A DNA stretch of 64,000 nt from the NCBI GenBank assembly GCA_947499125.1, contig CANMMP010000001.1, positions 1,302,001 to 1,366,000 of the forward strand. The letters are read 5' to 3'. The translations under genes were made by a program, and so were the position numbers. Below are positions 44,671 to 64,000 of the stretch, one piece after another. Positions within the stretch are counted from its first letter, which is position 1. Every line of letters begins with the position of its first letter. This stretch comes from an uncultured Pontibacter sp. Lineage in GTDB: Bacteria; Bacteroidota; Bacteroidia; Cytophagales; Hymenobacteraceae. Under the pieces are notes generated by a model. It was given only the letters and a program-made list of their open reading frames with translations, did not search any database and had not been told where the DNA came from.

Positions 44671-44688
44671 TCATCTGATAACTAAATC

Positions 44689-46821: not shown

Positions 46822-46832
46822 TATAAACAGGC

Positions 46833-49042: not shown

Positions 49043-49043
49043 T

Positions 49044-49370
49044 TTATTTAGCCTCTCCTGAGAAAACCTTCAGGCCTACCACACCAGCAACTATCAACAG
49101 AATACAGAATATCCTGATAAAGTCCCGCGGTTCGTTCAGAAAAACAATGCCAAGTATAGCGGTGCCTGCGGCTCCAATTCCCGTCCAGATGCCATAAGCT
49201 GTTCCTAAAGGCAGTTCTTTCATGGCCTGCGCTAAAAGTATAAAACTCAGGATCATGACGGCAACTGTAACCACACTGATAACAGGTTTTGTAAAACCTT
49301 CGCTATATTTCAGGCCAAACGCCCATCCTATTTCGCATATTCCAGCCAGTATCAGGTATACCCAAGCCAT
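49044..49370 (-). CDS. Small multidrug resistance family exporter (SugE/Gdx-like)
   Basis: A 108-residue four-helix transporter. The essential Glu lies in the first helix (VYLILAGICEIGWAFGLKYS). WAFGLKYSEGFTKP and the second-helix pattern are closer to the SugE/Gdx guanidinium exporter subgroup than to EmrE/QacE. ELPLGTAYGIWTGIGAAGTA is the conserved third-helix start. It works as a dimer exporting small cations by proton exchange. I see no guanidine riboswitch in the ~100 bases upstream. Confidence is high for the family, moderate for the subgroup. Confidence 0.88.
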   Translation of the reverse strand: MAWVYLILAGICEIGWAFGLKYSEGFTKPVISVVTVAVMILSFILLAQAMKELPLGTAYGIWTGIGAAGTAILGIVFLNEPRDFIRIFCILLIVAGVVGLKVFSGEAK

Positions 49371-49475
49371 AATTTCTCAGTTTTGTAGTAGCTACAAAGT
49401 TAAGTGTTTATACTTTCTTTTTTGTTGATAAGCTTGACCATGGCAAGTTTATTGTTAATGCTACACTCACGATAA

Positions 49476-50345: not shown

Positions 50346-50386
50346 AATTTCAGGCAGATCAGGGTTAACAGGAAAGCAGCAGCAGT

Positions 50387-51811
50387 TTATACCTGCAGCT
50401 TCACCTTATTACGATACGCAATACCTGCTACTAATGCTACCAGGCAAAGTATAGCTGTAATTATGATCTTAACGGAAACAGCAACAGCAGCCAGGTTATA
50501 AACGCCCAGTAACAGCACTATAGTAAGTATAAGCCAAACCATAGGGTAATAGCGCACCAGTTGCGTTTCGCGGAAATAGCGCACATAAAAACCGGCATAC
50601 CCCATATACAACAACGCTGCAAAGGTAGTATAAGCAGCAGCCTGGTAACCAAAGATCGGTACAAGTATAAAATTAAGAATTATGTTGCCTACCCCGGCCA
50701 CAACCGAGATACGCCATAGTTTATCGGAGTGCTCGCGGTAAGTTAATGTATTAAAAACCAGCAGGTACATAGGCCGGTAATTATACCCCATCAGTATTAT
50801 AATTGCCAGCGGGTAAGCCTGTTGCAGGTCATCGTTCTTTATAAGCAGTTCAAATATCTCGCGCATCCAAAGGCAGGCAACCGTGGTCAGGAACAGGAAA
50901 AGCCCCATCAGGGCAAACGTAAGGTACCGTATCTGTATGGCCGCGCTTTTGTCGGTGTTGCGGGCCAGGTTGTGCATATAAAACGGCGATGCAGCCTGCG
51001 AAACCGCCCACGAAGCCATCACAAAGTAAGTACCGAAACTGGAAGCTACATTGTATAAACCTATCTTCCGGACGGGCACATTCAGCACATCGAGTACGAG
51101 CCTGTCGGAGGTATCCATTACAAAAGAGGCCATATGGTGCGGCACAACCGGCAACGATACGCGCAACGACTGCTTTATGCGGCTCCACTTAAACTTAAAT
51201 ATCGGGAAAAGGCGCTGCTGTATATAGATATGGTAGCCATTGAGCAAAAAACCAATGAACACCGAAACAAAACCGGCATAAAACCAGCCCATAAAACCCA
51301 TCCGCAGGTAAGCTATAGTATAAATATTAAGCCCCACGCCTATTGCCCCAACTATAAACGTCCGGATGGCAACCGGCACCGGCTTCTGCGATAACTGGTA
51401 GTAAATATTGCTCTGGATCTCCGTCATGGAGAACAGCATAATAGGCAGGCCAGCCAGTAAGGCAATCTCCAGTTGGTAACCTTCGGCTTCAGCAGGAACC
51501 AGGAAGTATAAAGCCACTATTACCAGCAATCCGTATAAAAGCGACCATAAGCTAACAAAGCCGTTTATTTGTCGCCATATCCAGGTATAGCGTTTAGGCA
51601 ACCGGGCATAACTGTTTACCAGCACAACCGAAAGGCCTAAGCTCTGCAGCATCGAAAACAAAGACACGTACGCCGTTACGATACCTGCCACACCATAGTC
51701 GGCGGGTGTAAGGTAGCGCGTAATAATGGGCAGGGTAACTACTCCGGCCAGGCGGGGTACCTGGGCAGCTAAACCATAAATTGCCGCATGCGATAATAAC
51801 TTTCGAAGCAT
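50387..51811 (-). CDS. Polysaccharide flippase (oligosaccharide/O-antigen translocase)
   Basis: A 474-residue MOP-superfamily membrane protein with about 14 predicted helices. SHAAIYGLAAQVPRLAGVVT and LPIITRYLTPADYGVAGIVT are the typical N-terminal signature of Wzx-like flippases, and LRVSLPVVPHHMASFVMDTS, then DRLVLDVLNV, begins the second half. It would move lipid-linked sugars across the inner membrane. No glycosyltransferase cluster surrounds it here, so the polysaccharide is unknown. ATG start. Confidence 0.87.
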   Translation of the reverse strand: MLRKLLSHAAIYGLAAQVPRLAGVVTLPIITRYLTPADYGVAGIVTAYVSLFSMLQSLGLSVVLVNSYARLPKRYTWIWRQINGFVSLWSLLYGLLVIVALYFLVPAEAEGYQLEIALLAGLPIMLFSMTEIQSNIYYQLSQKPVPVAIRTFIVGAIGVGLNIYTIAYLRMGFMGWFYAGFVSVFIGFLLNGYHIYIQQRLFPIFKFKWSRIKQSLRVSLPVVPHHMASFVMDTSDRLVLDVLNVPVRKIGLYNVASSFGTYFVMASWAVSQAASPFYMHNLARNTDKSAAIQIRYLTFALMGLFLFLTTVACLWMREIFELLIKNDDLQQAYPLAIIILMGYNYRPMYLLVFNTLTYREHSDKLWRISVVAGVGNIILNFILVPIFGYQAAAYTTFAALLYMGYAGFYVRYFRETQLVRYYPMVWLILTIVLLLGVYNLAAVAVSVKIIITAILCLVALVAGIAYRNKVKLQV

Positions 51812-51928
51812 TGCTTAAAATTATAGTTTAAATTTCAGCATCGTGCATAGTGCCGGTAATTTTGTAGCATGTTGGCCGCTGCACAGGCACATTTCGGAGG
51901 GTGCTACACCATTGGCACAAAAAATTAG

Positions 51929-51936
51929 TATATTTG
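51929..51936 (+). promoter_or_regulatory. Candidate -7 element (TATATTTG) upstream of ricT-like gene
   Basis: Exact match to TAnnTTTG, 56 bases before the GTG start. A TTGG at 51912 lies about 14 bases upstream, closer than the usual -33 spacing. Confidence 0.42.
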
Positions 51937-51977
51937 TTACTTACCTGATTAAGAAAACAAGAATTAATAGCTATATA

Positions 51978-51984
51978 AAGGAGA
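51978..51984 (+). promoter_or_regulatory. Strong Shine-Dalgarno fixing a GTG start
   Basis: AAAGGAG lies 7 bases before the GTG at 51992. Good SD sites are uncommon in this window, and this one decides the start of the PSP1 protein. Confidence 0.7.
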
Positions 51985-51991
51985 TTAAAAA

Positions 51992-53554
51992 GTGGGTTGT
52001 AATTCATGTTCCAGTGGCGGATGTGGCACCAAAAAGACCAGTGCTGATGGCACAGAGGTAGTTGGTGGCTGCAAAAGCAACGGCGGCTGCAGCACAGGAG
52101 GCTGTAACCGTTTAAATGTGTTCGACTGGCTCAGCGATATGGAAATACCCGTTTCGTTTGAGGAGTTCGACATTGTAGAAATAAGATTTAAGGGAGGCCG
52201 CAAGGACTTTTACCGTAATAGTAGCAGAATAGACCTGACCACCGGCGATGCCGTGGTAGTAGACGTGCCGAATGGCCACCACATTGGCTTTGTATCCCTG
52301 AAAGGGGAACTTGTGCGCCTGCAGATGCTGAAGAAGAAAGTTGACAACAACGAGGAGATCCGCAGCATTTACCGCATCGCTACCGAGCAGGACATGGAGA
52401 AATTCAACGAGGTCCGTGACCTGGAAGGTGGCGCCATGTACCGCTCGCGCGAGATCATTCAGCAGCTGGGTCTTAAAATGAAGTTGTCGGATGTAGAGTA
52501 CCAGGCTGACAGAAGCAAGGCTACTTTTTATTATTCTGCTGATGACCGTGTTGACTTCCGTGACCTGATAAAGAAGCTGGCTGAAGAGTTTAAGGTGCGA
52601 ATTGAGATGCGCCAGATAAGCCTCCGCCACGAAGCAGGCCGCTTAGGTGGCATTGGCTCGTGCGGCCGCGAACTTTGCTGTTCTACCTGGCTCACCGATT
52701 TCAAGAGCGTATCAACAACAGCAGCGCGTTACCAGAACCTTTCGCTTAACCCAAGCAAGCTTTCGGGCCAGTGCGGCCGTTTGAAGTGCTGCCTGAACTA
52801 TGAACTGGAAACGTACATGGAAGCCCTGAAGGATATTCCAACAGTAAGCCGCCCATTGCAGACCCAGAATGGAGACGCCTTTTTACAGAAGACCGATATC
52901 TTTAAAAAGATGATGTGGTTTGGTTTTAAAGGCGATAATAACTGGTACCCGGTGCCTGTGGAGCGTGTGCATGAAATACTGGAGCTAAATGCTAAAGGAG
53001 TTGCTGTAGATTCGTTGACTGTAGTTGTAGAAGAGGAGCCGAAACAAAACGAATTTGTAGCGCAGGTAGAAGGTAACCTGGAACGTCTGGACGACAAGTA
53101 TAAAGCCAAGAAGAAAAAGAAGAAGAAAAAGAAAAGTGGCTTACCTGGCGGAGATAGTGCAGTTGCAGAATCACAAGATGCGCAGGTAAGGGAAAGCAGG
53201 CCAAGACCAGCTACCGAACAACGCGAAGGCGAACAGCGCCCGAGACGGCAGCGCCCTGACAACAGGAACCGCACCCGCGATGGCCGTGAAGGTGGAGGCC
53301 GTGAACGCGACATCCGCGAAGGTGAGAACAGAGAGCGCGAACCGGGCCGCGAGCGCAGCAGCAACCGCGAACGCGGCGACCGCAGTAATCGTGGGCCAAG
53401 GCCACCGCGCGAAGGCCGGGACAAACCAGCTCAGGTGCCTCCTGCAACACCGCCACAGGCAAACGCCGAAGGGCAACCGCCTAAAAAGCAACGATCCAGA
53501 AAACCGTTCCGGGGCAGAAAACCGGATCAGAATAAACCGAATACTGATGCATAA
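51992..53554 (+). CDS. PSP1-domain (RicT/YaaT-like) protein with Cys-rich head and charged low-complexity tail
   Basis: A 520-residue protein. A Cys/Gly-rich head of ~40 residues (CNSCSSGGCG, CKSNGGCSTGGC) could bind metal. The PSP1 domain spans ~50-290: RRIDLTTG-like SSRIDLTTGDAVVVDV, VEYQADRSKATFYYSADDRV, DFRDLIKKLAEEFKVRIEMR, and the cysteine motifs GSCGRELCCSTWL and SGQCGRLKCCLNYELETYM. From residue ~370 the chain is a Lys tract (nine Lys) and then Arg/Glu/Gly/Pro-rich disorder to the end. B. subtilis RicT binds an Fe-S cluster and directs RNase Y; in Bacteroidota the gene sits beside gldH as here. GTG start with a strong SD. Confidence 0.88.
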   Translation: MGCNSCSSGGCGTKKTSADGTEVVGGCKSNGGCSTGGCNRLNVFDWLSDMEIPVSFEEFDIVEIRFKGGRKDFYRNSSRIDLTTGDAVVVDVPNGHHIGFVSLKGELVRLQMLKKKVDNNEEIRSIYRIATEQDMEKFNEVRDLEGGAMYRSREIIQQLGLKMKLSDVEYQADRSKATFYYSADDRVDFRDLIKKLAEEFKVRIEMRQISLRHEAGRLGGIGSCGRELCCSTWLTDFKSVSTTAARYQNLSLNPSKLSGQCGRLKCCLNYELETYMEALKDIPTVSRPLQTQNGDAFLQKTDIFKKMMWFGFKGDNNWYPVPVERVHEILELNAKGVAVDSLTVVVEEEPKQNEFVAQVEGNLERLDDKYKAKKKKKKKKKSGLPGGDSAVAESQDAQVRESRPRPATEQREGEQRPRRQRPDNRNRTRDGREGGGRERDIREGENREREPGRERSSNRERGDRSNRGPRPPREGRDKPAQVPPATPPQANAEGQPPKKQRSRKPFRGRKPDQNKPNTDA

Positions 53555-54020
53555 GAACCTTTTATGCTGGGCTTCAGCATTACTGCTACTGTTAACTGCC
53601 TGCGACCCGGCCCGTGTGTACGAACAAAACACAGACCTGCCGGAAGGCAACTGGGCGATAGATAATGCTCCGGTATTTGAGTTTGAGATCCAGGATACGG
53701 CACAGCAATATGCGGTGTTCGTGAACCTGCGCTACGACCTCGACTACGAGTTCTATAACCTGTATATGCAGCACGAACTAACCGGCCCCGATGGGAAGCA
53801 GCTATCAGAAAAATTGCACGAAATTACACTGATGGATCCTAAAACTGGTCAGCCGATCGGTAATGGTTCTGCCGGCACTTTTGATTTGCAGCAACCTATG
53901 CTTGAAAGTATAAAGTTTAAACAAGCCGGTACTTATAAGCTTAAAATAACCCAGTATATGCGCCGGGACCCCTTGCCGCATGTGCGGGCCGTAGGAATAC
54001 GGGTAGCAAAAAAAGAATAG
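53547..54020 (+). CDS. gldH: Gliding motility lipoprotein GldH
   Basis: A 157-residue lipoprotein: MHKNLLCWASALLLLLTAC is the signal with lipobox LTAC. NTDLPEGNWAIDNAPVFEFE, VFVNLRYDLDYEFYNLYM, LMDPKTGQPIGNGSAGTFDL and ESIKFKQAGTYKLKITQYMR are the family features. GldH is required for gliding in Flavobacterium johnsoniae and is linked to T9SS function. The ATG overlaps the end of the PSP1 gene by 8 bases. Its presence fits the T9SS sorting domains elsewhere in the window. Confidence 0.9.
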   Translation: MHKNLLCWASALLLLLTACDPARVYEQNTDLPEGNWAIDNAPVFEFEIQDTAQQYAVFVNLRYDLDYEFYNLYMQHELTGPDGKQLSEKLHEITLMDPKTGQPIGNGSAGTFDLQQPMLESIKFKQAGTYKLKITQYMRRDPLPHVRAVGIRVAKKE

Positions 54021-54038
54021 CGAAAAGGTTTAGAATAG

Positions 54039-54074
54039 AGCCCGCATCCCCTCAGGTTGCGGGCTTTGTTTTTA
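54039..54074 (+). terminator. Rho-independent terminator after gldH
   Basis: AGCCCGCA and TGCGGGCT pair around an 11-base loop, followed by TTGTTTTT. Confidence 0.87.
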
Positions 54075-54163
54075 TACTTTAATCAAAAACCGGGTTGCTG
54101 CGTAATATAGGTACCAAACAATTATTAACCAGAAAAAGATACCACTACACCTCGCCATTCTAT

Positions 54164-55252
54164 ATGGAGTCTACCCTTATAATAGCCGGATTTATATTTA
54201 CCCTCTTTTCGTTTCTGCCCTACCTGCAGGTGCCCTGGTGGTGGGTGCGTGTGCTCGATTTTCCGAGGCTGCACGTAGCCGTTATACTTTCAGTTATACT
54301 TGTAGCATATGTGGCCACTTATTATACCTGGTCATGGCAGATAAACGCAATGCTGGCATTATGGGTGTTAGCTATACTTAACGAGGTAAAGTACATCTAT
54401 AATTTTACACCCATTGCCCGCACCGAAGCCCTCCGTTCCGAAAAGCAGAAGCCCGACAATGCATTTACTATCCTGATCGCCAATGTACGGATGGTAAATA
54501 AGAAGCATAAGAAGTTTCAGGCCCTGGTGTTAAAAGAGAACCCCGATATACTGGTAATGAACGAACCTGACGAGGCATGGCATAAAAGCGTGTGCAAAGC
54601 CTTTGATGAGCGTTACCCTTATAGTATAAAGAAGCCACTGGAAAACACCTACGGCATGATGATGTACAGCAAACTAAAACTTTCTGAGAGCGAAGTCAGG
54701 TTTTTGGTGGAAGATGATATACCTTCTTTTTATACTGTGGTGGAATTGCGCAGCGGCAAAAAGTTTGACCTGTATACAGTGCATCCCCAACCGCCACGCC
54801 TGTTGCGCGACACCGAAACCCGTGAAGCGGAGTTGCTGCTGGTTGCCAAAAATGTAAAAAAGACCCGCTACCCTTCGGTAGTGGCCGGCGACCTGAACGA
54901 TGTGGCCTGGTCGAGAACTACGAATTTATTTAAACAGATAAGCGGCCTGCTTGACCCGCGTGTGGGTCGTGGCTTTTACAATACTTACAATGCATTTATC
55001 CCGCTTTTCCGCTACCCTTTAGATCACGTTTTTTACGATCCGTCTTTCCGGTTGCTGCGGCTTAAGCGTCTATCGAAGTTTGGCTCCGACCACTTCCCGA
55101 TAAGTATAAGCCTGAACTATGAACCTGAGCGCGAAGAAGAGCAGGACACACCTGTAGCAGAGCCCGAAGACCACCAGGAAGCGAATGAGCTGATACAGGA
55201 AGGACTTGAAAAAGGCGAGGAACTGAACAACGAGAAAAAGCAGGAAAAATAA
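54164..55252 (+). CDS. Membrane-anchored endonuclease/exonuclease/phosphatase family protein
   Basis: A 362-residue protein with three N-terminal membrane helices (LIIAGFIFTLFSFLPYLQ, VAVILSVILVAYVATYY, INAMLALWVLAILNEV) and an EEP catalytic domain from ~105: ILIANVRMVNKKHKKFQALV, ILVMNEPDEAW, VAGDLNDVAWSRTT and FGSDHFPISISL contain the Asp, Asn and His active-site residues. The last 50 residues are Glu/Lys-rich. Substrates may be nucleic acids or phospholipid-derived phosphates. I use the ATG at 54164; a TTG 23 codons earlier gives a non-hydrophobic extension. Confidence 0.85.
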   Translation: MESTLIIAGFIFTLFSFLPYLQVPWWWVRVLDFPRLHVAVILSVILVAYVATYYTWSWQINAMLALWVLAILNEVKYIYNFTPIARTEALRSEKQKPDNAFTILIANVRMVNKKHKKFQALVLKENPDILVMNEPDEAWHKSVCKAFDERYPYSIKKPLENTYGMMMYSKLKLSESEVRFLVEDDIPSFYTVVELRSGKKFDLYTVHPQPPRLLRDTETREAELLLVAKNVKKTRYPSVVAGDLNDVAWSRTTNLFKQISGLLDPRVGRGFYNTYNAFIPLFRYPLDHVFYDPSFRLLRLKRLSKFGSDHFPISISLNYEPEREEEQDTPVAEPEDHQEANELIQEGLEKGEELNNEKKQEK

Positions 55253-55255
55253 AAA

Positions 55256-55279
55256 ACCCGCTCAGCTAGCTGAGCGGGT
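55256..55279 (-). terminator. Rho-independent terminator of the cold shock gene
   Basis: The 24-base palindrome has arms ACCCGCTCAGC and GCTGAGCGGGT; on the minus strand it is followed by TTTTTTA, so it terminates the cold shock gene, while the plus side has no T-run. Confidence 0.85.
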
Positions 55280-55322
55280 CAAAATAGATGAATGAGCCCG
55301 AGGGCCAATGTATCGTTATAAC

Positions 55323-55514
55323 TTAGATTCTCTCTACGTTAATAGCATTCAATCCTTTTTTGCCATCTTTAACTTCATAAGACACGCGGTCGTTCTCACG
55401 GATCTCGTGAGTTAAGCCTGTCTGGTGAACAAAGATCTCCTGGTTTGTATCGTCAGAGATGATGAAACCGAAACCTTTAGATACGTTAAAGAATTTTACT
55501 TTACCTGTTTGCAT
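55323..55514 (-). CDS. Cold shock protein (CspA family)
   Basis: A 63-residue single cold shock domain. GKVKFFNVSKGFGFIISDD holds RNP1 (KGFGFI) and EIFVHQTGL holds RNP2, both binding single-stranded RNA or DNA. Slightly shorter than E. coli CspA, as usual in Bacteroidota. I use the ATG of MQTGKVKFF; the frame extends 26 codons upstream without a plausible start. It is divergent from the low-complexity protein gene across a 350-base spacer. Confidence 0.95.
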   Translation of the reverse strand: MQTGKVKFFNVSKGFGFIISDDTNQEIFVHQTGLTHEIRENDRVSYEVKDGKKGLNAINVERI

Positions 55515-55865
55515 GATAATGATTTTAATTAATTGCCGTAAAGGTAAGAAACCCTGACAAATACATAGCCCGCCCCTGCATTTTTTTTGCAAAAAAGTTT
55601 TTCCTTACCGGTATTTATCTTTCGCCTGCACTTAAAAACGCACTGCTTAAATCACTTTTAAAACCTCATCTGCTAATTGATACCAAAAACTATGTGCCCT
55701 GAGGTGCGTATAGTTAAAACGTTCTGTTACACTAAAATGGGTCTTTAAAAAACCTTATTTCAGTGTTTGGAATAAAACCAATGCCGTTACCGGAATACAA
55801 ACAATTACCGGTGCGGCAATCAGCGCTCTTATTTTTTAACTATATAAATCCAGGAGATTATAACT
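55515..55865. other. Divergent region between cold shock and low-complexity genes
   Basis: About 350 bases. It holds the likely long 5' leader of the cold shock gene, three copies of TTACCGG (55605, 55787 and 55805), an inverted repeat at 55782-55818 and a good Shine-Dalgarno AGGAG at 55852-55856 before the low-complexity gene. No open frame of note. Confidence 0.55.
55782..55818. repeat. Imperfect inverted repeat upstream of the low-complexity gene
   Basis: TGCCGTTACCGG faces CCGGTGCGGCA (complementary apart from one inserted base) across 14 bases, about 50 bases before the start codon. A candidate operator or leader hairpin. Confidence 0.45.
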
Positions 55866-57692
55866 ATGAAAGACAACGAGAAAAATCAATCATCCGGCAA
55901 CCTGTCGGATAGTACATCAGGGTCATCAGGCTCATCATCGATGGGTAGCAATACCGGAAGCTCAGATCTGACATCAAGATCAGGTTCTTCCAGCTCAAGC
56001 CCGACAGCGTCAAGCTCATCATCAACATCGAAAAGTAATAAATCAACTACAAATGGCAGCGGTACTTCAGCTACCTCATCAAAAGCCAAATCAGGCACTA
56101 AAGCCAAAACATCAACTTCCACTACTTCCAAGTCTGGTAAAGGTTCTTCCTCATCTTCTAAGGGCTCCGATTCGTCAAGCTCACAGAAGGGTTCAGGATC
56201 AGATTCAAGCATGGGCGGCTATGGCTCTATGAGCACAGGCAGCTCGAGCCAGGACAGCTATGGCAGCCAGCAGCAGGGCTCTCAGAACCGTGGTAGCCAG
56301 CAAGGCAACTATGGCTCGCAGCAGGACAGCTACGGCAGCCAGCAAAGCGGAAGCGGCTATGGTTCGCAGGGTGGTTACGGATATGGCAGCCAGCACAGCA
56401 ACTATGGCGGCCAGAGCGGCTATGGTTATCAGGGCGATTATGGTTCGCAGCAACGCGGCGGTAGTTCCGACCAGGATAATTATGGCAGCCGCCAGCAAGG
56501 CTCTCAGAACTGGGGCAGCCAGGGTGGCTATAACTATGGCAACCAGGGCGGCATGGAAGGTAACCGTGTAAGCAGCCAGGACTCTTACAGCCAGGGCTCG
56601 TGGGGTAACCAAGGCGGCATGCAAGGCGGCTACCAGAACCGTGAAGGCGATAACCAGGGCGGCTATGGCGTTATGAACGACCAGGGCGGCATGGGCAGCT
56701 ACAACGCAACCCGCGGCGAAAGCCGGTCTAACTATGGTGGCAGCTCACAAGGCGGCTACGGTAGTTCTTCTCAGGGAAATTACGGCTCGTCTCAGGGCAA
56801 CTACGGTTCATCACAAGGCAACTATGGCAGCCAGGGCTCATCTTCTGGTAACTACGGTGGCCAGAGCAACTATGGCTCATCAGATTATGGCAGAGGCCAG
56901 CAGGACTACGGTTCAGGCTCATCCAGATCTAACTATGGTTCGTCATCAGGCAGAGGCGGAAGCGATTATGGCCAGGGTGGCTATGGTTCTTCATCCAGAA
57001 GCAGCTCACAAGGCAACTATGGCGACTCCGACCGTTATGGCTCTATGGGCTACGGCTCGTCAAGAGGCATGAGCGAGTACGATCGTGATGACTATGGTTC
57101 ATCAAGAGGTTATGATTCGCAGAACAGTATGCGTGGCGGCTATGGTTCGCAGGGCGGATACGGCTCAAGAGGCGGATCTTATAACGACGAGTATCGTTCA
57201 TCGCGTTACGGCTCACAAGGTTCTGATTACGGACAAGGTGGCTATGGCGGATCATCGCGCAGCGGTGGCTCTTACGGCAGCGATCGTGACCAGGGCGGTT
57301 ATGGTTCTTCATCAAGAGGCTCATCGTCGCAGGGCAACTATGGCAGCCAGGGCGGCTACGGCGACAGTAACTATAGCCGTGGCATGAGCGGCGGATATGG
57401 TTATGGTTCAGGCAGCTCAAGCCAGGGTGACTACGGTTCTTCTCAGGGCCGAGGCAGCCAGGGCGGTTACAGCCAGGGTGGTTATGACCAGGGAGGCCGC
57501 GGAGGCGACCAGAGCCGCTATGGTTCCATGGACAGCAACACCTCGTACTACAGCGATAACCGTGGCTCTAATTCCCGCGAAAATTACAGCGGATACGGAA
57601 GCCAGCAAGGTCGTAACTATAACCAGGACGATAATGACTCGTACCAGACGCGCCGTAGCGACCGCTACCGCAACTTAGACTCTGACTATTAA
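55866..57692 (+). CDS. Gly/Ser/Gln/Tyr-rich low-complexity (prion-like) protein
   Basis: A 608-residue protein with no signal peptide, no membrane segment and no recognised folded domain. Residues 1-~116 are Ser/Thr/Lys/Gly-rich with no Tyr. From ~117 to ~580 the chain is built of short units such as NYGSQ, GYGSS, DYGRG and QGNYGSSQ: I count about 62 Tyr, mostly followed by Gly, spaced by Gly, Ser, Gln, Asn and scattered Arg and Asp. It ends TRRSDRYRNLDSDY. The composition closely resembles prion-like domains of eukaryotic FUS/EWS proteins that phase-separate. ATG start with SD AGGAG. The neighbouring cold shock gene is divergent. A secreted or stress-related structural role is an alternative; no function is claimed. 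Confidence 0.85.
   Translation: MKDNEKNQSSGNLSDSTSGSSGSSSMGSNTGSSDLTSRSGSSSSSPTASSSSSTSKSNKSTTNGSGTSATSSKAKSGTKAKTSTSTTSKSGKGSSSSSKGSDSSSSQKGSGSDSSMGGYGSMSTGSSSQDSYGSQQQGSQNRGSQQGNYGSQQDSYGSQQSGSGYGSQGGYGYGSQHSNYGGQSGYGYQGDYGSQQRGGSSDQDNYGSRQQGSQNWGSQGGYNYGNQGGMEGNRVSSQDSYSQGSWGNQGGMQGGYQNREGDNQGGYGVMNDQGGMGSYNATRGESRSNYGGSSQGGYGSSSQGNYGSSQGNYGSSQGNYGSQGSSSGNYGGQSNYGSSDYGRGQQDYGSGSSRSNYGSSSGRGGSDYGQGGYGSSSRSSSQGNYGDSDRYGSMGYGSSRGMSEYDRDDYGSSRGYDSQNSMRGGYGSQGGYGSRGGSYNDEYRSSRYGSQGSDYGQGGYGGSSRSGGSYGSDRDQGGYGSSSRGSSSQGNYGSQGGYGDSNYSRGMSGGYGYGSGSSSQGDYGSSQGRGSQGGYSQGGYDQGGRGGDQSRYGSMDSNTSYYSDNRGSNSRENYSGYGSQQGRNYNQDDNDSYQTRRSDRYRNLDSDY
56214..57600 (+). repeat. Degenerate [G/S/N/D]-Y-G repeat tract
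   Basis: Irregular 5-12-codon units centred on Y-G with Ser/Gln/Gly spacers. Codons vary between units (TAT/TAC, GGC/GGT, TCA/AGC), so the repeat is kept at protein level more than DNA level, arguing against very recent expansion except at 56796-56830, where three near-identical QGNYGSS units occur. Confidence 0.75.
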
Positions 57693-57714
57693 TCAGATAG
57701 ATAACATATAACAG

Positions 57715-57747
57715 AAAGCCACTCCTTTTTTAGGGAGTGGCTTTTTA
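57715..57747. terminator. Bidirectional terminator
   Basis: AAAGCCACTCC and GGAGTGGCTTT pair around a 7-base loop, with T-run to the right and TTCTGTT on the left reading minus. It is shared by the convergent low-complexity and NmrA-type genes. Confidence 0.87.
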
Positions 57748-57771
57748 TTTTTATCTTAAGATAACCTGCCC

Positions 57772-58644
57772 CTACTTAAAGGAGTCTTTGCATTGCTCCA
57801 GGAACTGCCTGATATTATGAGGTTTGCAACCAGTTAGTTCTTCTACAGTTCCATTTGCCTGGCCGCCGTGCCCTGCCCGTTGCACACTGCTAAGCTCCAT
57901 AAAAGCATTGATAAACCACTCAGGTGCCTGCTGTTGTTGCATACCTTGCCGTGCAGCATCATCGGGTACATCCACATAAGTTACAGACTTACCTGTTGCA
58001 TCACTTAAGGCTTCAGCCAGTTCCGTACCGTTCAATGCTTCAGGGCCAGTCAGGTCGTATGCTTTGCCTTCGTGCCCGTTGCCGGTCAGTACTTCTACCG
58101 CTACAGTAGCAATATCGCGGGCATCTATGTAAGGTACTTTTCCATCGCCTATAGGCATATATAATTTGCCTTCCTGTTTTACACTTTGTGCATTATAGTC
58201 TTCTAAATTCTGCATAAAACTTGATGGCCGCAGAAAAGTATAGGGAATGCCACTCTGCTTTATATGATCTTCGATCTCACGGTGCCAGCGCCCCAGTTGT
58301 ATACCTGGCTCTGCATCAGCGCCCATGGCCGATAGTTTTACAATATGTTTTACATCGGTTCGCTTTGCTTCATCTACCAGCTTTTTAGCCATCTCAACCT
58401 GCCCGTCGGTAAACGGTGTGATCAGGAAAACTTTATCGGCGTGTGTAAAGGCAGCGTGCAGCGATTCCGGGTCTGTAAACTCCATTTCTACCAGTTCCAC
58501 ATCGGGGAGGCGGCGCAGGTTTTCGCCTTTAATAAGTGAGTGCACGCCGGCCCTTACCCTTACGCCATCAATCATCGAAAGCTGTTTAACTACCTCGCGG
58601 CCTACGGTACCTGTGGCCCCGGTTATTAATATTGTTTGCTGCAT
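57772..58644 (-). CDS. NmrA-like NAD(P)-binding oxidoreductase
   Basis: A 290-residue atypical short-chain dehydrogenase. ILITGATGTVGREVVKQLS is the NAD(P) Rossmann motif (GxxGxxG). HIVKLSAMGADAEPG, LGRWHREIEDHIKQSGIPYT, FLRPSSFMQNLE and YIDARDIATVAVEVL match the NmrA/HSCARG or quinone-oxidoreductase-2 group. The usual SDR Tyr-x3-Lys is not evident, as in NmrA proteins. It may act as a redox sensor or reduce quinones. ATG start, isolated gene. Confidence 0.87.
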   Translation of the reverse strand: MQQTILITGATGTVGREVVKQLSMIDGVRVRAGVHSLIKGENLRRLPDVELVEMEFTDPESLHAAFTHADKVFLITPFTDGQVEMAKKLVDEAKRTDVKHIVKLSAMGADAEPGIQLGRWHREIEDHIKQSGIPYTFLRPSSFMQNLEDYNAQSVKQEGKLYMPIGDGKVPYIDARDIATVAVEVLTGNGHEGKAYDLTGPEALNGTELAEALSDATGKSVTYVDVPDDAARQGMQQQQAPEWFINAFMELSSVQRAGHGGQANGTVEELTGCKPHNIRQFLEQCKDSFK

Positions 58645-58727
58645 AACTGGTTAAAATTAGGTTTGTAGCTATAGTTACGATAGCAAGCCGCATTAGGGTA
58701 GGCTTAAAAACAGTTTTGGCTTAGACC

Positions 58728-59582
58728 TTACTTAGGCTCTATGGTAACCAGGTATAGCTTGCCTTTTTCGTTTGATAGCAACAGCTGATTTGGAGATAAA
58801 AAAAGTACGGCTTCAGCCTGACCGGTACGGCCAACTGGCAAACAGTAACGCCTGCCTTCAAACCCAATCTGTCCTCCCTCCTGCTCAAACAAGTATAAAC
58901 GCCCGTAGCCCAGCAGGGCAAACCTACTTCCATTTGCAACTATATCGGCAGCTGTGACCGGCGACTTCAGCCTCATCTCTTCTATAGGTTGTAGGTCATG
59001 GTTAGTTCCGGAGGCAGGCAGTTTGTATAGTTTGGTTAGAGGCTTCAGGGCACGGCTTTTCGTGAAAAGGTAAAGCGAGTCGTTATGATGAAAGAATGCT
59101 TCGAGGTCGTAGTGGCGGTTTTTACGAACAGGAGGAAACCCCTGCTGATCGGAGAACTGAAACCGTATCGTATCCTGAATTTGTAGCGAACCTGCGTGTA
59201 ATTTATAGATCCTGAGGTCGCGGCGAAGGTTTGCGTTATTCCCGAAATCCCCGATGTATAGTTCGCCGGTTTTGCTTTGAGCCAGGTCTTCCCAATCCGT
59301 ATTTGGCAGATCCAGCTTTTCGGTTTTCAGCAGTTCTCCGCTTAGGTTAAACTCGTATAGTTCGGGGGCTATGCCGCTATCCGGATTGCTCCAGTACGTG
59401 GTGTCAGTTGCAAATGCAAAGCCTGAGCTTTCTTTTATTCTATCATCTAAACGCCCGATACGCTCGATGCTAACTTTATAGTTTTTCCGGAGACGCTCGA
59501 AATCGCTGTTCCGTTTATCAGACGAACAACCGCACAGGGCACTTTGCAGGTAAATGTAAAAAGTAAAGAGTTTTATAAGCAT
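58728..59582 (-). CDS. Lipoprotein with beta-propeller-like fold
   Basis: A 284-residue lipoprotein: MLIKLFTFYIYLQSALCGC is a signal with lipobox LCGC. The mature chain has repeated blade-like segments (LDDRIKESSGFAFATDTTYW, DWEDLAQSKTGELYIGDFGN, RHYDLEAFFHHNDSLYLFTK). WEDLA and GDFGNN recall SdiA-regulated/phytase-like propellers of Bacteroidota, but the match is only by eye. The gene lies directly downstream of the helicase gene (12 bases), so it is probably co-transcribed. Confidence 0.72.
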   Translation of the reverse strand: MLIKLFTFYIYLQSALCGCSSDKRNSDFERLRKNYKVSIERIGRLDDRIKESSGFAFATDTTYWSNPDSGIAPELYEFNLSGELLKTEKLDLPNTDWEDLAQSKTGELYIGDFGNNANLRRDLRIYKLHAGSLQIQDTIRFQFSDQQGFPPVRKNRHYDLEAFFHHNDSLYLFTKSRALKPLTKLYKLPASGTNHDLQPIEEMRLKSPVTAADIVANGSRFALLGYGRLYLFEQEGGQIGFEGRRYCLPVGRTGQAEAVLFLSPNQLLLSNEKGKLYLVTIEPK

Positions 59583-59594
59583 CCCGGACCAAAG

Positions 59595-62500
59595 TTAAGT
59601 TCTATCTGCCTGCCTGAGCACATCCATTACCTTGTCTTTATCAGCCCAGAACTGCCGGCTGTATACTTTGCGATAAGGCCAGTGGCGTTGCTGCAACAGC
59701 TGCGGCACATCGGCATGTGTATGCTTTACGGATAAGTGGCTATAGTATAGGTCATCGTCGGTAAGAACAGCGGCTTTATACTTTCCGTTTTCTATTAAGG
59801 TGAGGTCAGCGAATGGTACGGCAAGTTGCAGACCTGATAACTGGCTGGCAATACGTTCTTTTAGCAGCGGCACTCTATCGGGCATCGGTTCGCTTTTAGG
59901 CTGATAAGTAAAGTTGCCCTGGCTTACTTGCCTCGCGTAGTGCAGGTATTGTTTCAGTAGCTTCGGGCCGCTGTGCTGGGTATACTCTACGTGCAACTGC
60001 TCCGGTATTATACTTGCCACCACTATAATTTTACGTTTGGCCCGGGTGATAGCAACATTCAACCGGTTCTCGCCGCCGGACTGGTTCAGGCTACCAAACT
60101 GCATGGCAAAACGACCCTTCTCATCAGGCGCATATCCCACCGAAAGTATAATGACATCTTTCTCATCGCCTTGCATGTTCTCGATATTTTTAACCAGTAT
60201 AGTTGGCGGCAGAACTACAGTTTGCTGTTGTGCTCGCTCCTCCAGCAGATCCTGTACCAGCATTTGCTGATTATAGTTGAACGTGATCACGCCTACATCC
60301 TGATGGCCCTGTTGTAGTAAACGCAACACCAATTCCACCACTTTTTCTGCTTCGGGCAGGTTGCTATTGTTTTGCCACAGGCCATTTACTTTTAAATATT
60401 CTATAGCTGGCTTAGCTTTATTTAACTCCTGCAAGTCAGGTATAAACTCGAGTTTGCCGCGGTAAAAATACTGGTTCGAGAATTCGATCAGCTCCGGGAA
60501 ATGGCTGCGGTAATGCTGCGTGAGCATGGTTTGCGGCAAGTATAAACTACACAACTGCAACAACGATTCGGCAGATAGCTCTTCCACTTCTTCGTCGGTG
60601 GCATCGCTCCAGCGGGCACGGTACAGATCCGATGGTTTTAGCTGCTGCTCGTCGCCGGCAACTACTACCTGTGCGCCGCGCAACATGGCCGGTATACCCG
60701 TTTCCGCAAAACACTGCGAGGCCTCGTCAAATATCACCACATCAAAACAACGCTCCAGCGGTAACACTGCCGATACCGTTTCGGGAGAAGCCAGCCAGCA
60801 CGGCACCAGGTTCAGCATCTCATCAGAGAACAGCGAGAACAACTTCCGGATCGGGTATAAGCTTCGTTTTTTACTGACCTGCGCCTGCAGCCTGCGATAG
60901 GTAACAGCATTTCCCAAACGGTTAAATTCCATGTCGGCATAGGTCTGTTCCCGCAACTTTGACAGCACAATTTCCTGGCTCAGGCGTTGCTTTTCGTGTA
61001 ATAGTTGCTGCAATTCAGTTTCCAGGTTTTCCAGTTCGCCACTCGATGCCATGCGCAGTTCCGGGTACTGATTCTCGATCTCGTAGAGCCAGGCCAGGTA
61101 TAAACTGTTCAGGAAAAGGTGTTCGCCTTCGGTGGCAGTAGTTATAGTTTGAGACAGTAATTGGTGCGCAACTTCTCGTTCTGCATCGGTAAAGTTTGCT
61201 ACCAACGCATCGTGCCCTACCAACTGCTCAAAATGCTCCGACAGGTCTTTCAGTAAAGCAGATTTATAGTTTTCGTTTGCCAGTAATTCCCTGACCTGTA
61301 GTTCAGTTAACCATTTCAGCCAGTGGCTATAGTTTGCCTGCAGCTCTGTTATAGTTTGCGTTAAAGTTTGCAGATGTTGCGGCAGGGCTATAGTTCGGAA
61401 AAGCTTTTCGTGAAGCACTTTTTCGCGGTGCAGCTTTTTCAGCAGCTTTTGTGACTGTAGTGCTTTTTCTATAGTTGCTACTTTATCTAAAACCTGGTTC
61501 GGATAAGCTTCAATTTTAAGGTTAGTAACTATAGTTTGGTTGATGGCCTGCATCAGATTTTCGGCTTGCTCGCGTAAGGCGATCCTGCGTTGCAGTTCGC
61601 CTACTCCGCCTTCATTCAGTTCGAGTTTATAGGTTGCCAGCGCCTTCTTTAATGCTTTTTTATCGGATGAAAAGGCCCAGCCTATACTTTTAAACAAGTT
61701 GTTCTGTTGTTGCTCAAATGCTACTATAGCCTGTTTTATAGTTCGCAGATCTTCGGCTGCAAGTGCAGCATCCGGGGCCGGACAAACCAGGTATAGTTCT
61801 TTAAGTTGCTGTCCCTGTTTTGCCAGTTCTTTGGAGTTACTCTTAATAATTCGCACCAGCATACCCGGCACATCATCCTGCTCCAGAAGCCCTTGTATTT
61901 CAGTTATAGTTGGCAGTGCCAGTTTATACTTTTCCAGATCATCCAACCCAAAACCAAAGCCGCTTAGCTCACTTATACTTTGCTGACGCTGCGCAAATTG
62001 CTCCGGAAGTTGAGTTATAGTTTGCTCCAGTTCCTGGCGTTGCGGCCAGCCATAGTTTTTAAAGCTATGCCTGCTTTTCCACGTGAAATCATCCTGAGCA
62101 TAAACTATAGCCTGTTGCAAAAACTGACGTAAGCGTGGCAGAAACTCAGCTGCTGTAGTTGCGGTAAAGAATTTATAGTTTGCTGACAGTGAAATATGCG
62201 GTTGCTGCAGGTTGCTGCGCAGGTATAGTTCCTTAGCCGACCAGCCACATACAGACGTATCAAAAAGGGCAGACTTAAATCCTTCCAGTTTTTCGATGCA
62301 GCGGTTTATGCCGCGGCTCACCTCCAGGAAAGTGCGGTCGGTGTAGATGCTGTTGAGCGCCAGGTTCTGTTTTTTATACTCCGGCAGTTGGTCTATCTGC
62401 AAACCTATCTGCTGAAAAACACTTTTGCGATCGGCGTTAATGTCGTGCACCAATGCGGCAAAAGCTCCAAGGCCTTCTTCAGCCAACCGTTTGTGCACTA

Positions 62501-63530
62501 CATCCAGGGCGGCGCGTTTCTGGCTTACCACCAGCACCTTTTTGCCTCGCGCAGTAAAATCCGAAACCAGGTTACAGATAAGCTGCGACTTACCTGTACC
62601 CGGCGGGCCCTGCACAACTATACTTTTGCCTTGTTTTACCTGTTGCAGGGCAGCTTCCTGGGAGGCATCTATTTTAAAAACAGTAAAGGTGTGTTGTGCC
62701 TGCATGGTCTGTGTTGGTACTACAGGAGTTGCGAACAAATCTTCCATTGTCTGCAGTTCTTCGCGCTCCAGCAAGGCATCGTAATCAGCTAACAAATACG
62801 AGGCTGCCTGTGGGTAAATGCCCAGCACAGCTTCCTGCTCCAGGTATAGTTGCCCCGGTTTCAGGTCTGCTTCGTAGTCTGCTTTTTTATAGTCGCGGAA
62901 AGCCTTTAGTTTGTCGGTAAAAAGATCACGGCCGGCGTGTATAGCCAGCTGCTCAGACTTTAACAGTTCATACACCTGCGTCCGGAATTCTAAGGGATGA
63001 TCTGATAAAGTGCTTACATCCAGCTCCAGTAAATTTTCGGCTAAAGGCGTGTTGTTATAGTGTGCGTAAGCGAGTAAAAAGCTTTGGTTAAAACGGGGCG
63101 GCTGTGCCGTACTTTGCGCTACTTCCCACTCCTGTGCAGCATTTACCTGTAACGCAACCGGAAACAAGAACAGCGGGCAACGCACCACGGTGCCATCCGA
63201 AAACATGCCATGCACAAAGGGCCAGCCAATGTATAGTTCTTCGCTGCCGCGCTCTTCCTGTAGCATGTCGGAGCGGCGTTTTATGTAGCGCAGGCGTTTG
63301 CTAAGGGCTGCAACAAGCTCGTAACGGCTGTCGGTTACCGGGCTTAAAGCTATCTTCTTAGCTCCTGCAATCAACTTCTCAACTATAGTATAAGCCGGCT
63401 GCCCAAGTATAAAATCCAGCGATTCCACATCCAGGTGCAACTCCTTTTGCAGGCGCAGCAACAGCAGGGCTTTGTTGCCGGTGCTCAGGTTCAGTAGCCT
63501 GCGTCGGTAGTTCTTAAGGATGTTTTTCAT
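59595..63530 (-). CDS. Large SF1 (UvrD/Upf1-like) helicase with degenerate VSR-like C-terminal domain
   Basis: A 1311-residue protein. Residues ~1-290 are a DUF4011-like head (RRLLNLSTGNKALLLLRLQK, YIGWPFVHGMFSDGTVVRCP). Helicase motifs: Walker A VQGPPGTGKSQLICNL (~307), motif II VVIFDEASQCFAETGIPAML (~933), motif III AGDEQQLKPSD, motif IV LTQHYRSHFPELIEFSN, and motif VI NVAITRAKRKI (~1155). A ~600-residue coiled insertion lies between motifs Ia and II. The last ~100 residues align by eye with MTES_1575/VSR-type nuclease domains, but the expected ExD is TDD, so nuclease activity is doubtful. ATG chosen; a TTG seven codons upstream is an alternative. The gene is very dense in TATASTT words. 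Confidence 0.85.
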   Translation of the reverse strand: MKNILKNYRRRLLNLSTGNKALLLLRLQKELHLDVESLDFILGQPAYTIVEKLIAGAKKIALSPVTDSRYELVAALSKRLRYIKRRSDMLQEERGSEELYIGWPFVHGMFSDGTVVRCPLFLFPVALQVNAAQEWEVAQSTAQPPRFNQSFLLAYAHYNNTPLAENLLELDVSTLSDHPLEFRTQVYELLKSEQLAIHAGRDLFTDKLKAFRDYKKADYEADLKPGQLYLEQEAVLGIYPQAASYLLADYDALLEREELQTMEDLFATPVVPTQTMQAQHTFTVFKIDASQEAALQQVKQGKSIVVQGPPGTGKSQLICNLVSDFTARGKKVLVVSQKRAALDVVHKRLAEEGLGAFAALVHDINADRKSVFQQIGLQIDQLPEYKKQNLALNSIYTDRTFLEVSRGINRCIEKLEGFKSALFDTSVCGWSAKELYLRSNLQQPHISLSANYKFFTATTAAEFLPRLRQFLQQAIVYAQDDFTWKSRHSFKNYGWPQRQELEQTITQLPEQFAQRQQSISELSGFGFGLDDLEKYKLALPTITEIQGLLEQDDVPGMLVRIIKSNSKELAKQGQQLKELYLVCPAPDAALAAEDLRTIKQAIVAFEQQQNNLFKSIGWAFSSDKKALKKALATYKLELNEGGVGELQRRIALREQAENLMQAINQTIVTNLKIEAYPNQVLDKVATIEKALQSQKLLKKLHREKVLHEKLFRTIALPQHLQTLTQTITELQANYSHWLKWLTELQVRELLANENYKSALLKDLSEHFEQLVGHDALVANFTDAEREVAHQLLSQTITTATEGEHLFLNSLYLAWLYEIENQYPELRMASSGELENLETELQQLLHEKQRLSQEIVLSKLREQTYADMEFNRLGNAVTYRRLQAQVSKKRSLYPIRKLFSLFSDEMLNLVPCWLASPETVSAVLPLERCFDVVIFDEASQCFAETGIPAMLRGAQVVVAGDEQQLKPSDLYRARWSDATDEEVEELSAESLLQLCSLYLPQTMLTQHYRSHFPELIEFSNQYFYRGKLEFIPDLQELNKAKPAIEYLKVNGLWQNNSNLPEAEKVVELVLRLLQQGHQDVGVITFNYNQQMLVQDLLEERAQQQTVVLPPTILVKNIENMQGDEKDVIILSVGYAPDEKGRFAMQFGSLNQSGGENRLNVAITRAKRKIIVVASIIPEQLHVEYTQHSGPKLLKQYLHYARQVSQGNFTYQPKSEPMPDRVPLLKERIASQLSGLQLAVPFADLTLIENGKYKAAVLTDDDLYYSHLSVKHTHADVPQLLQQRHWPYRKVYSRQFWADKDKVMDVLRQADRT

Positions 63531-63722
63531 CGGGAGTATAATTAAAAGCAAGTTAATAGCTTTTAGCTATAGTTCCAGTTAAGGGCGGCCTACCTGCACT
63601 TTAATGGAACGCCCCAGGTCTGAAATTATTTAAAATAGAAGTAACGAATAACCGGTATGCAACAAATAAGCCTGAAATCAGTTTTAAACTTTACCTTCGT
63701 TTAAACATTATATGTTGCCTGC

Positions 63723-64000
63723 ATGCACACCCCGATCTCACCTAAATATAAACCTGTTTACTGGCTGGGCTTTTGCCTTTTTTTACTCTTTTTTACTGCC
63801 TGCGATAAACCTGAAAACAAAAAAGTATACCAGAAAGGCGCCCGCCTCGACCAATACACCACCACCAAACAATACCCCGGTAAAGTAGCCGACGAAAGCC
63901 TGGCCGACTGGAAGAAAAAAATCCCGGAAATAGAAAAGATCGCCATTACATCTACTGCCGACGGCGAAAAACAACCCGCTTTATTTTACGATTCCGGGAC
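63723..64000 (+). CDS. Lipoprotein gene, 3' partial, possible alpha/beta-hydrolase
   Basis: The first 92 codons of a gene cut by the window end. A lipoprotein signal (YWLGFCLFLLFFTAC, lipobox FTAC) is followed by a charged region and KIAITSTADGEKQPALFYDS. That last segment resembles the strand before the catalytic domain in secreted alpha/beta-hydrolases of Bacteroidota, but too little is present to be sure. ATG at 63723; an ATG at 63712 is in another frame. Divergent from the helicase gene across a 192-base spacer. Confidence 0.65.
   Translation, partial: MHTPISPKYKPVYWLGFCLFLLFFTACDKPENKKVYQKGARLDQYTTTKQYPGKVADESLADWKKKIPEIEKIAITSTADGEKQPALFYDSG

What the first reader, a model, noticed from the sequence alone, without database searches (positions are those of the whole stretch)
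61141..62240. Heavily over-represented 7-base word TATASTT/AASTATA throughout the window
Reading both strands I kept meeting TATACTT, TATAGTT and their complements in genes and spacers alike. In this 1,100-base part of the helicase gene I count 17 (starts at 61143, 61265, 61328, 61350, 61389, 61470, 61530, 61683, 61737, 61792, 61905, 61925, 61974, 62016, 62103, 62174 and 62224), against about 0.3 expected at equal base frequencies for the four words together. They fall in different codon frames. By contrast I find only two in the 1.6-kb catalase gene and two in the 1.8-kb low-complexity gene. This resembles HIP1 of cyanobacteria or DNA uptake sequences in being an interspersed word, possibly tied to methylation, repair bias, uptake or nucleoid binding. 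The mechanism is unknown and is my inference.
Basis: partly seen in the sequence, partly recalled or inferred. Interest (0 to 1): 0.8.

Follow-up and report, generated by a model that had tools for sequence, protein, structure and literature searches.

The report
Dialect-forming DNA word in Pontibacter
The genomes of Pontibacter bacteria are peppered with thousands of copies of one short DNA word whose spelling differs between related species, like the self-recognition words of a few transformable bacteria, but its cause here is not yet known.

Summary
Confirmed and extended. The window (Pontibacter) holds 273 AASTATA; its genome holds 15,670 against 1,138 for the reversed pattern. In 464 kb the word far exceeds a synonymous-codon shuffle (1380 vs 237±13), is denser outside genes, and shows no even spacing and no strong strand bias.

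The word is A-NN-TATA-R; NN differs between species: AG (20), GG (one clade of 12), AC or AC+AG (one clade of 7, window included), TA (one); 10 of 50 genomes have little or none. The AG/AC/GG spellings are not enriched in 154 genomes of sister genera or 148 others of the class (one in both). At unchanged amino acids the AG and GG words are kept within their own dialects (0.46 vs 0.19 expected; 0.68 vs 0.23), not in wordless species (AG) or the other dialect; for AC this is unresolved. So a bias acting on the finished word is, or recently was, active. Sampled plasmids are poor in it.

It behaves most like uptake-sequence dialects of Neisseriaceae, yet 23 of 23 Pontibacter genomes searched lack a type IV pilus/T2SS ATPase, and no DNA-methyltransferase family of five tracks it. 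I favour recombination-linked molecular drive by an unidentified recogniser. New variant of a known kind.

The parts
61141..62240 (.). Reported stretch: 18 copies of AASTATA/TATASTT (13 TATAGTT, 3 TATACTT, 2 AACTATA), including the overlapping dyad AACTATAGTT at 61527-61536
59595..63551 (-). Helicase ORF (1318 aa; best NCBIfam hit anti-phage ProA, 528 bits, below the 1500-bit cut-off) holding 31 words (21 AAC-type, 10 AAG-type)
1..64000 (.). Whole window: 150 AAGTATA/TATACTT and 123 AACTATA/TATAGTT, in genes and spacers, both strands (135 forward, 138 reverse)
26031..27671 (+). Catalase HPII-like ORF (below the family cut-off) with only 2 words (example of a low-density gene)
55866..57692 (+).
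24519..25880 (+). Word-rich ORF, 13 words in 1362 bases
44689..46821 (+). ftsH, used as the species marker and as part of the orthologue alignments; 6 words

Best explanation
Pontibacter chromosomes carry an interspersed word A-NN-TATA-R. An unidentified protein that reads this 8-bp word in double-stranded DNA gives word-bearing alleles a small advantage in being kept or copied. I think the most likely route is homologous recombination: word-bearing DNA is preferentially taken in, processed or integrated, so words accumulate by molecular drive, as uptake sequences do. Changes in the recogniser alter the NN dinucleotide, which makes dialects; the old dialect then decays site by site while the new one builds up, partly at new places. 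SHOWN here: the word, its enrichment, the dialects and their fit to a one-gene tree, dialect-specific retention at synonymous sites for the AG and GG spellings, both-strand and coding/non-coding occurrence, and low content of the sampled plasmids. INFERRED: that one recogniser exists, that the bias acts through recombination, and that dialect switches are changes in its specificity. The recogniser gene was not found.
For: Enrichment genome-wide. Four dialects sharing TATA: NN = AG, AC, GG, TA. On the ftsH tree the six labels need 7 changes, against a shuffled mean of 26.4; GG is one clade with support 100. Retention at conserved amino acids, by distinct alignment columns: AAG word within AAG species 0.456 vs 0.188 expected (61 columns; 95% interval of the difference 0.158-0.381); AGG within AGG species 0.678 vs 0.227 (32 columns; 0.307-0.593); AAG word in wordless species 0.103 vs 0.124, in AGG species 0.066 vs 0.167. 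On recent branches the few classifiable gains (10 single-base, 5 multiple, of 37) come from several positions and base changes, so the bias seems to act on the finished word. Both strands are enriched in genes (4.9-7.3x over the codon shuffle); non-coding density 7.9/kb vs coding 3.5/kb, alike in tandem, convergent and divergent spacers. Plasmid stretches of three species O/E 2.5, 2.7, 4.3 vs 16-30 on small chromosome samples. Features shared with DUS dialects in PMC3630211 (passages and section 11 read): fixed core with variable flank, fit to phylogeny, two dialects in one genome, overlapping dyads. Here the dyad AACTATAGTT is 14.9x expectation in AC species and 5.1x in this genome; AAGTATACTT 3.9x in AAG species. 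Two of 21 sampled blocks of this genome, his/trp genes (69 AAC:14 AAG) and surface-polysaccharide genes (79:27), stand out, as expected if imported from an AC-only relative.
Against: No T2SS/T4P ATPase (PF00437) in 23 of 23 Pontibacter genomes searched. Uptake sequences are described as evenly spaced (statement in PMC1939737, passage seen); here pair correlation is at or above 1 at short range and gap CV is 1.16. Maintenance of the AC word in the AC clade is not shown (0.278 vs 0.225, 12 columns, interval includes zero), and AAG words persist between AAG and AC-clade species (0.486 vs 0.111 and 0.546 vs 0.085). A stricter four-taxon test on ~200 kb had little power and did not show extra gains, nor for AAG better retention (AGG loss 0.39 of expectation vs 0.55 for controls, gains 1 vs 2.2 expected; AAG loss 0.82 vs 0.43, gains 1 vs 2.4). 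In the looser test recent gains and losses are about equal (AGG 21 vs 20, AAG 16 vs 23, with 26 and 14 ambiguous losses), and the loss fraction is below controls for AGG (20 of 138 vs 86 of 374) but above them for AAG (23 of 100 vs 55 of 336). No overlapping-dyad excess in GG species (14 vs 11.0). The import reading of the two blocks was not tested by phylogeny.
Confidence: 0.4

Rival explanations
1. Weak selection for genome-wide binding of an abundant sequence-reading chromosomal protein. Each site adds a very small benefit; the protein's specificity drifts, making dialects.
For: Site-autonomous behaviour: no spacing rule, both strands, similar in all spacer types. Graded tolerance, e.g. AAGTATG 6.6x and AGGTATA 3.3x in AAG species, as for a binding protein. 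Enrichment 17.5x and 28x and about 1.6- to 8-fold slower change fit a scaled advantage of roughly 1 to 3 per site (my calculation).
Against: No robust helical phasing: maximal 10-11 bp power 1.97 in this genome and 2.1 in AGG species; 8.4 in the AAG set, but there orthologous pairs from four genomes were counted repeatedly. Plasmids, which share the cytoplasm, are poor in the word. No candidate protein.
Confidence: 0.27
2. HIP1-type cause: sequence- or methylation-directed mismatch repair resolves mismatches towards the word, so the word is a by-product of repair.
For: Elhai's model for HIP1 gives the same signs: over-represented words, alternates in some species, dependence on a recogniser (PMC4390886; abstract, section 2.2 and section 3.4 part 1 read). 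HIP1 counts of 300-2700 per Mb are of the same order as here.
Against: The word is not a palindrome. Of 14 word-rich genomes searched, PF01555 is in 8, PF02086 in 4, PF07669 in 11, PF02384 in 13 and PF00145 in 6; PF02384 is also in 8 of 8 low genomes and 5 of 5 of other genera. The TA dialect ATATATA holds no C or G, so cytosine methylation cannot mark it. Alternates here keep the TATA core rather than being unrelated palindromes. Vsr and MutH were not searched.
Confidence: 0.2
3. Chi-like recombination signal read by a RecBCD/AddAB-type nuclease.
For: 7-8 bp, asymmetric, genus-specific, over-represented; a known route by which a word is favoured through recombination (Chi properties recalled).
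Against: Little strand polarity: in eight 140-200 kb stretches with mostly one-sided GC skew the word lies on the G-rich strand in 1568 of 2955 cases (53%; sums; a slight excess, with orthologous sites counted more than once). Density of about 4 per kb is far above recalled Chi densities for 7-8-mers.
Confidence: 0.08
4. By-product of codon usage, base composition or context mutation only.
For: High ATA and GTA codon use in this genome.
Against: Codon shuffle 237 vs 1380; denser outside genes; order-3 Markov excess; retention depends on dialect for AG and GG; gains by several base changes.
Confidence: 0.03

Closest known systems
DNA uptake sequence (DUS) dialects of Neisseriaceae (PMC3630211)
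   Same: Thousands of copies; species dialects with a conserved core; dialects fit the species tree; two dialects at near-equal numbers in one genome (Simonsiella muelleri; here the window genome); overlapping dyads; permissive in spacers
   Different: Longer word there (10-12-mer, recalled), 7-8-mer here; DUS is read by the pilin ComP, while no T4P/T2SS ATPase was found here; I saw no transformation data for this genus; density here (3.9/kb) exceeds the highest DUS density reported there (5918 in 2.4 Mb); the DUS link to terminators is not seen here
Highly iterated palindromes (HIP1 and alternates) of cyanobacteria (PMC4390886)
   Same: Interspersed, very abundant, replaced by other words in some species
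   Different: Palindromic 8-mers tied to orphan methyltransferases; here non-palindromic, and none of five methyltransferase families tracks it
Uptake signal sequence (USS) of Pasteurellaceae (PMC1939737)
   Same: Genomic word explained there by uptake bias
   Different: Evenly spaced there; T4P-type competence (recalled); no T4P ATPase here
Chi sites (recalled)
   Same: Short asymmetric over-represented word
   Different: Chi is strongly strand-polar; this word is not

Membership tests
DNA uptake sequence (DUS) | Highly over-represented interspersed word in the genome | tested here: met
   15,670 vs 1,138 control
DNA uptake sequence (DUS) | Dialects with conserved core, congruent with species tree | tested here: met
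   ANNTATAR with NN = AG/AC/GG/TA; 7 changes on the ftsH tree vs 26.4 shuffled. One-gene tree only
DNA uptake sequence (DUS) | Type IV pilus with DUS-binding pilin ComP | tested here: not met
   PF00437 absent from 23 of 23 Pontibacter genomes searched while 13 of 14 control genomes ring; pilins themselves not searched
DNA uptake sequence (DUS) | Word raises uptake/transformation | not testable with these tools
   needs an experiment
HIP1 / HIP | Palindromic word | tested here: not met
   AASTATA, AGGTATA are not palindromes; the dyad AACTATAGTT is a minority (43 dyads among 1052 AACTATA in 464 kb)
HIP1 / HIP | Cognate orphan DNA methyltransferase in word-rich genomes | tested here: not met
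   Five MTase families; none in all 14 word-rich genomes of the 28-genome set (nearest PF02384, 13 of 14, but also in 8 of 8 low and 5 of 5 outside genomes). An MTase outside these families, or one lost in an assembly gap, is not excluded
HIP1 / HIP | Methylation of the word | not tested
   no methylome data held; one literature search returned one paper whose title and abstract start do not concern it
Chi site | Strand polarity with replication | tested here: not met
   53% on the G-rich strand over eight stretches (sums); 902:901 forward:reverse on C1 samples without the oddly skewed L001, 954:932 with it (sums)
USS (Pasteurellaceae) | More even spacing than random | tested here: not met
   gap CV 1.16; pair correlation 1.1-1.3 below 300 bases, much as for control words
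Very-short-patch repair product (Vsr) | One mutation type creates the word; precursor depleted | tested here: not met
   Most one-mismatch neighbours not depleted (exception AACTAGA 0.15-0.33); the few classifiable gains use several base changes. Vsr gene not searched

The most novel reading that the evidence does not exclude
Pontibacter has an uptake- or self-recognition-sequence system independent of type IV pili, the first in Bacteroidota that I know of: a new DNA-reading receptor whose specificity changes made at least three dialect switches and thereby partly isolated lineages genetically, with dialect mixtures recording past gene exchange.
Probability: 0.25. Interest if true: 0.92.

Novelty: new variant of a known kind. 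Interest (0 to 1): 0.8.

Why it matters
Only a few groups are known to me to carry genome-wide self-words (DUS, USS, HIP1), and for HIP1 the cause was still a model in the paper read. This genus offers 50 held species genomes with four spellings, mixed genomes and wordless sisters, which makes the cause findable by genetics: the recogniser should be present in word-rich species, lost or inactive in wordless ones, and altered at each dialect switch. The word may also serve as a time stamp: the sampled plasmids are poor in it, and blocks with a shifted dialect mark candidate imports. If it is a DNA-uptake word, it would imply a pilus-independent recognition system.

Tried and rejected

Led nowhere: five DNA-MTase families gave no gene that tracks the word. 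The four-taxon gain/loss test was under-powered; its result is told under evidence against. I looked for foreign origin of low-density genes: the family scan failed on a strand error and was not repeated; reading the first residues suggested ordinary, partly highly conserved genes (recognised by eye, e.g. NADH dehydrogenase subunits), not mobile ones. The his/trp and polysaccharide labels of L001 and L006 are also my reading of N-terminal residues, from no family search. A bin analysis by orthologue identity was mostly uninformative: 292 of 381 genes had no orthologue in the sampled DNA. One script stopped with an error after its main results.

Rows dropped: 3 of 15 gene alignments; 10 of the 41 loci are not Pontibacter and were used only as outside samples. 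Pooled pair counts gave one apparent exception, the AAC word in AAG species (0.445 vs 0.129, 373 comparisons); by distinct columns it vanishes (8 columns, 0.188 vs 0.165). Dialect labels of G201, G192, G021, G022, G196, G187, G193, G206 rest on 5.1 kb each plus whole-genome counts; G202 on 10 kb. Some low genomes keep a weak signal (G007 GG 6.0x and AG 4.9x, G205 GG 6.0x, G200 AG 5.2x), relic or weak activity. The ftsH tree used the quick method, root at the midpoint; that AG is ancestral is inference.

Literature: searches (listings seen; two returned none) showed no report of this word in titles and abstract starts; the library is open-licence PMC only. Papers read: PMC4390886 (abstract, section 2.2, section 3.4 part 1), PMC3630211 (passages, section 11), PMC1939737 (passages). 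Other papers: search listing only.

Full report
1. What was checked. The finding is right. All 17 starts are there, plus one more (18). The window holds 273 copies of AASTATA on either strand. It lies in a 3.98-Mb genome (G000), contig C1:1302001-1366000. The host is Pontibacter: 31 of 41 loci found with a window protein are named Pontibacter records at 74-85% identity, and a T9SS tail marks Bacteroidota. Genome-wide there are 15,670 AASTATA against 1,138 for the reversed pattern. In 464 kb of the genome (21 stretches) AACTATA (1052) and AAGTATA (921) are the two most extreme 7-mers under Markov orders 1 to 3, and 1380 copies in genes stand against 237±13 in 60 synonymous-codon shuffles.

2. 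Anatomy. TATA is constant; the base after it is rarely T (0.11-0.25 of background; 0.37 for AGGTATA in this genome) and A or G is preferred, depending on dialect; the first base is mostly A; the variable part is the two bases before TATA. Hence A-NN-TATA-R. Most one-mismatch neighbours lie at about 0.5-2.8 times expectation, with graded exceptions such as AAGTATG 6.6x and AGGTATA 3.3x in AAG species; AACTAGA is depleted (0.15-0.33). Non-coding density is 7.89/kb and coding 3.49/kb (reversed control 0.43 and 0.26); tandem, convergent and divergent spacers have 8.45, 8.78 and 9.14 per kb. Orientation is even: 902:901 forward:reverse on contig C1 samples without L001, 954:932 with it (sums). There is no even spacing (gap CV 1.16; pair correlation 1.1-1.3 below 300 bases, similar to some control words). 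Overlapping dyads are enriched in the AC dialect (29 vs 2.0 expected in four AC-species stretches; 40 vs 7.9 in this genome without the window) and in AAG species (45 vs 11.4), but not for AAG in this genome (8 vs 6.5) or in GG species (14 vs 11.0).

3. Dialects. Twenty-kb samples of relatives showed at once that the top 7-mer differs between species. Scoring all 16 NN: AG 11-58x in AAG species (10-13x in three with 5-kb samples), AC 19-42x in AC species, GG 23-61x in GG species, AC 18x and AG 16x together in the window genome, TA 33x in G204. Whole-genome counts agree: ARSTATAV is at least 5 times the reversed control in 38 of 50 genus genomes, below 3.6 in 10 (G204 among them), between in 2; ATATATAR is 5,103 in G204 against 1,082 control, while in the other 49 it is near control, except about 2x in its sister G206. 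None of 154 genomes of five other genera of the family exceeds about 1.6, and none of 148 others of the class, one of them in both sets, exceeds 2.5. Those searches cover only these spellings.

4. Fit to the tree. On an ftsH DNA tree of 50 genomes the six labels need 7 changes (shuffled mean 26.4, 0 of 200 as low); the GG species are one clade (support 100), the seven AC and AC+AG species another (99), with the AG species P. arcticus beside it (99). Inference: AG is old; AC, GG and TA are derived; two groups lost the word or never had it strongly. Species with low enrichment tend to have larger genomes (Spearman -0.62 between size and ARSTATAV enrichment, n=50, not corrected for relatedness; G204 counts as low there).

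5. Is it maintained? Twelve orthologous genes (of 15 aligned) were compared at positions where all touched amino acids agree. Counting distinct columns, the AAG word is kept between AAG species in 0.456 of comparisons vs 0.188 for synonymous alternatives, and AGG between AGG species in 0.678 vs 0.227. The AAG word is not kept in wordless species (0.103 vs 0.124), nor in AGG species (0.066 vs 0.167), nor, where AGG species still carry it, among themselves (0.162 vs 0.476). AGG carried by AAG species is likewise not kept (0.092 vs 0.245). AGG words compared in AAG (0.191 vs 0.165) or wordless species (0.281 vs 0.133) show intervals that include zero. For the AC clade the data are too few: AAC 0.278 vs 0.225 (12 columns), AAG 0.344 vs 0.194 (20 columns), both intervals including zero; AAC words are not kept in AAG species (0.038 vs 0.153); AAG words are kept between AAG species and the AC clade (0.486 vs 0.111; 0.546 vs 0.085). 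Pooled pair counts give larger contrasts (0.646 vs 0.141; 0.815 vs 0.183) but reuse sites. In syntenic stretches of four AGG and four AAG species (140-200 kb each), the resident word survives in 47-88% of aligned positions against 30-65% for 7-mers of the same G+C; foreign words mostly behave like controls. On recent branches gains and losses are about balanced; gains are 3.5-4.2 times those of 100 sampled same-composition 7-mers (21 vs 5.0; 16 vs 4.6 per word, not corrected for the number of near-words), while the loss fraction is below controls for AGG (20 of 138 vs 86 of 374) and above them for AAG (23 of 100 vs 55 of 336). The stricter test shows no excess of gains (1 in each set). Taken together the word changes about 1.6 to 8 times more slowly than comparable sequence, and with 17-28x enrichment this corresponds to a scaled advantage of about 1 to 3 per site (my arithmetic; equilibrium assumed).

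6. Switching. Where AAG species have AAGTATA, AC-only species have AACTATA at the same columns in 2.3% and still AAGTATA in 26.7%; GG species have AGGTATA in 12.3% and AAGTATA in 14.3% (pair counts). So AC words arose mostly at new places. The window genome and P. fetidus carry both. In two of 21 sampled blocks of the window genome the ratio is far from even: L001 (his and trp genes by my reading) 69 AAC:14 AAG, L006 (surface polysaccharide genes by my reading) 79:27; heterogeneity chi-square 95, 20 d.f.; without these two 41, 18 d.f., so other blocks differ too. The helicase ORF of the finding is also AAC-rich (21:10 vs 102:140 in the rest of the window, Fisher p 0.012, chosen after the fact). 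I read these as later arrivals from AC relatives or exposure to the AC bias alone; not tested.

7. Mobile DNA. Stretches of plasmids of P. akesuensis, P. kalidii and P. actiniarum (70, 70 and 95 kb) have AAGTATA at 2.5, 2.7 and 4.3 times expectation, chromosome samples of the matching genomes 18, 30 and 16 times (25, 5 and 25 kb; the link of G020 to P. actiniarum is inferred). The word thus seems to mark long-resident chromosomal DNA.

8. Cause. Five DNA-MTase families were searched in 28 genomes (14 word-rich, G204, 8 low, 5 of other genera): PF01555 in 15, PF02086 in 9, PF07669 in 21, PF02384 in 27, PF00145 in 10. PF02384 is missing from word-rich G006 and present in all 8 low genomes and all 5 of other genera; no family follows the word. 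PF00437 is absent from all 23 Pontibacter genomes searched and present in one outgroup and 13 of 14 controls. This argues against an orphan-MTase cause as in HIP1 and against type-IV-pilus uptake as in DUS/USS. The pattern of dialects, mixed genomes and overlapping dyads is nevertheless closest to DUS as described in PMC3630211. I therefore favour molecular drive through recombination by a recogniser not yet known (0.4), with weak selection for a chromosomal DNA-binding protein (0.27) and repair-directed bias (0.2) as serious rivals. The reality of a dialect-forming word I hold at above 0.9.

9. Membership. It is not filed as DUS, USS, HIP or Chi, because at least one defining feature of each was tested and not met. 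It works like DUS dialects. Hence new variant of a known kind.

Noticed in passing
L125, L209, L210, L211 (genome G204): A private fourth dialect, ATATATA[AG], about 23x expectation for ATATATA in 80 kb; weak in one of the four sampled stretches (L210), perhaps an island.
   Followed up: partly
L001 and L006 (G000 C1:1-20000 and 350001-370000): Blocks with mostly the AAC spelling in a genome that otherwise has both; his/trp genes and surface polysaccharide genes by reading of N-termini.
   Followed up: partly
464 kb of the window genome: ATA is the commonest isoleucine codon (40%; 35% outside words) and GTA the commonest valine codon at 45% G+C; low-word relatives of similar G+C have ATA 29%.
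   Followed up: partly
window:59595-63551 (-): 1318-aa helicase matching anti-phage ProA and Hhe models well below cut-off: a possible defence protein relative.
   Followed up: no
window and relatives: CAGGTA/ACCTG words are also enriched about 2-4x, and similar words appear in unrelated Bacteroidota loci (e.g. L073), so probably a general codon/context effect.
   Followed up: partly
window:18699-19066 (-): tmRNA gene with tag GEYNYAMAA.
   Followed up: no
50 genus genomes: Low-enrichment species have larger genomes (Spearman -0.62; not corrected for relatedness).
   Followed up: partly
L172-L208 (AAG species): Peak at 10.8-bp periodicity in distances between words; orthologous pairs counted repeatedly, so significance unknown.
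   Followed up: no
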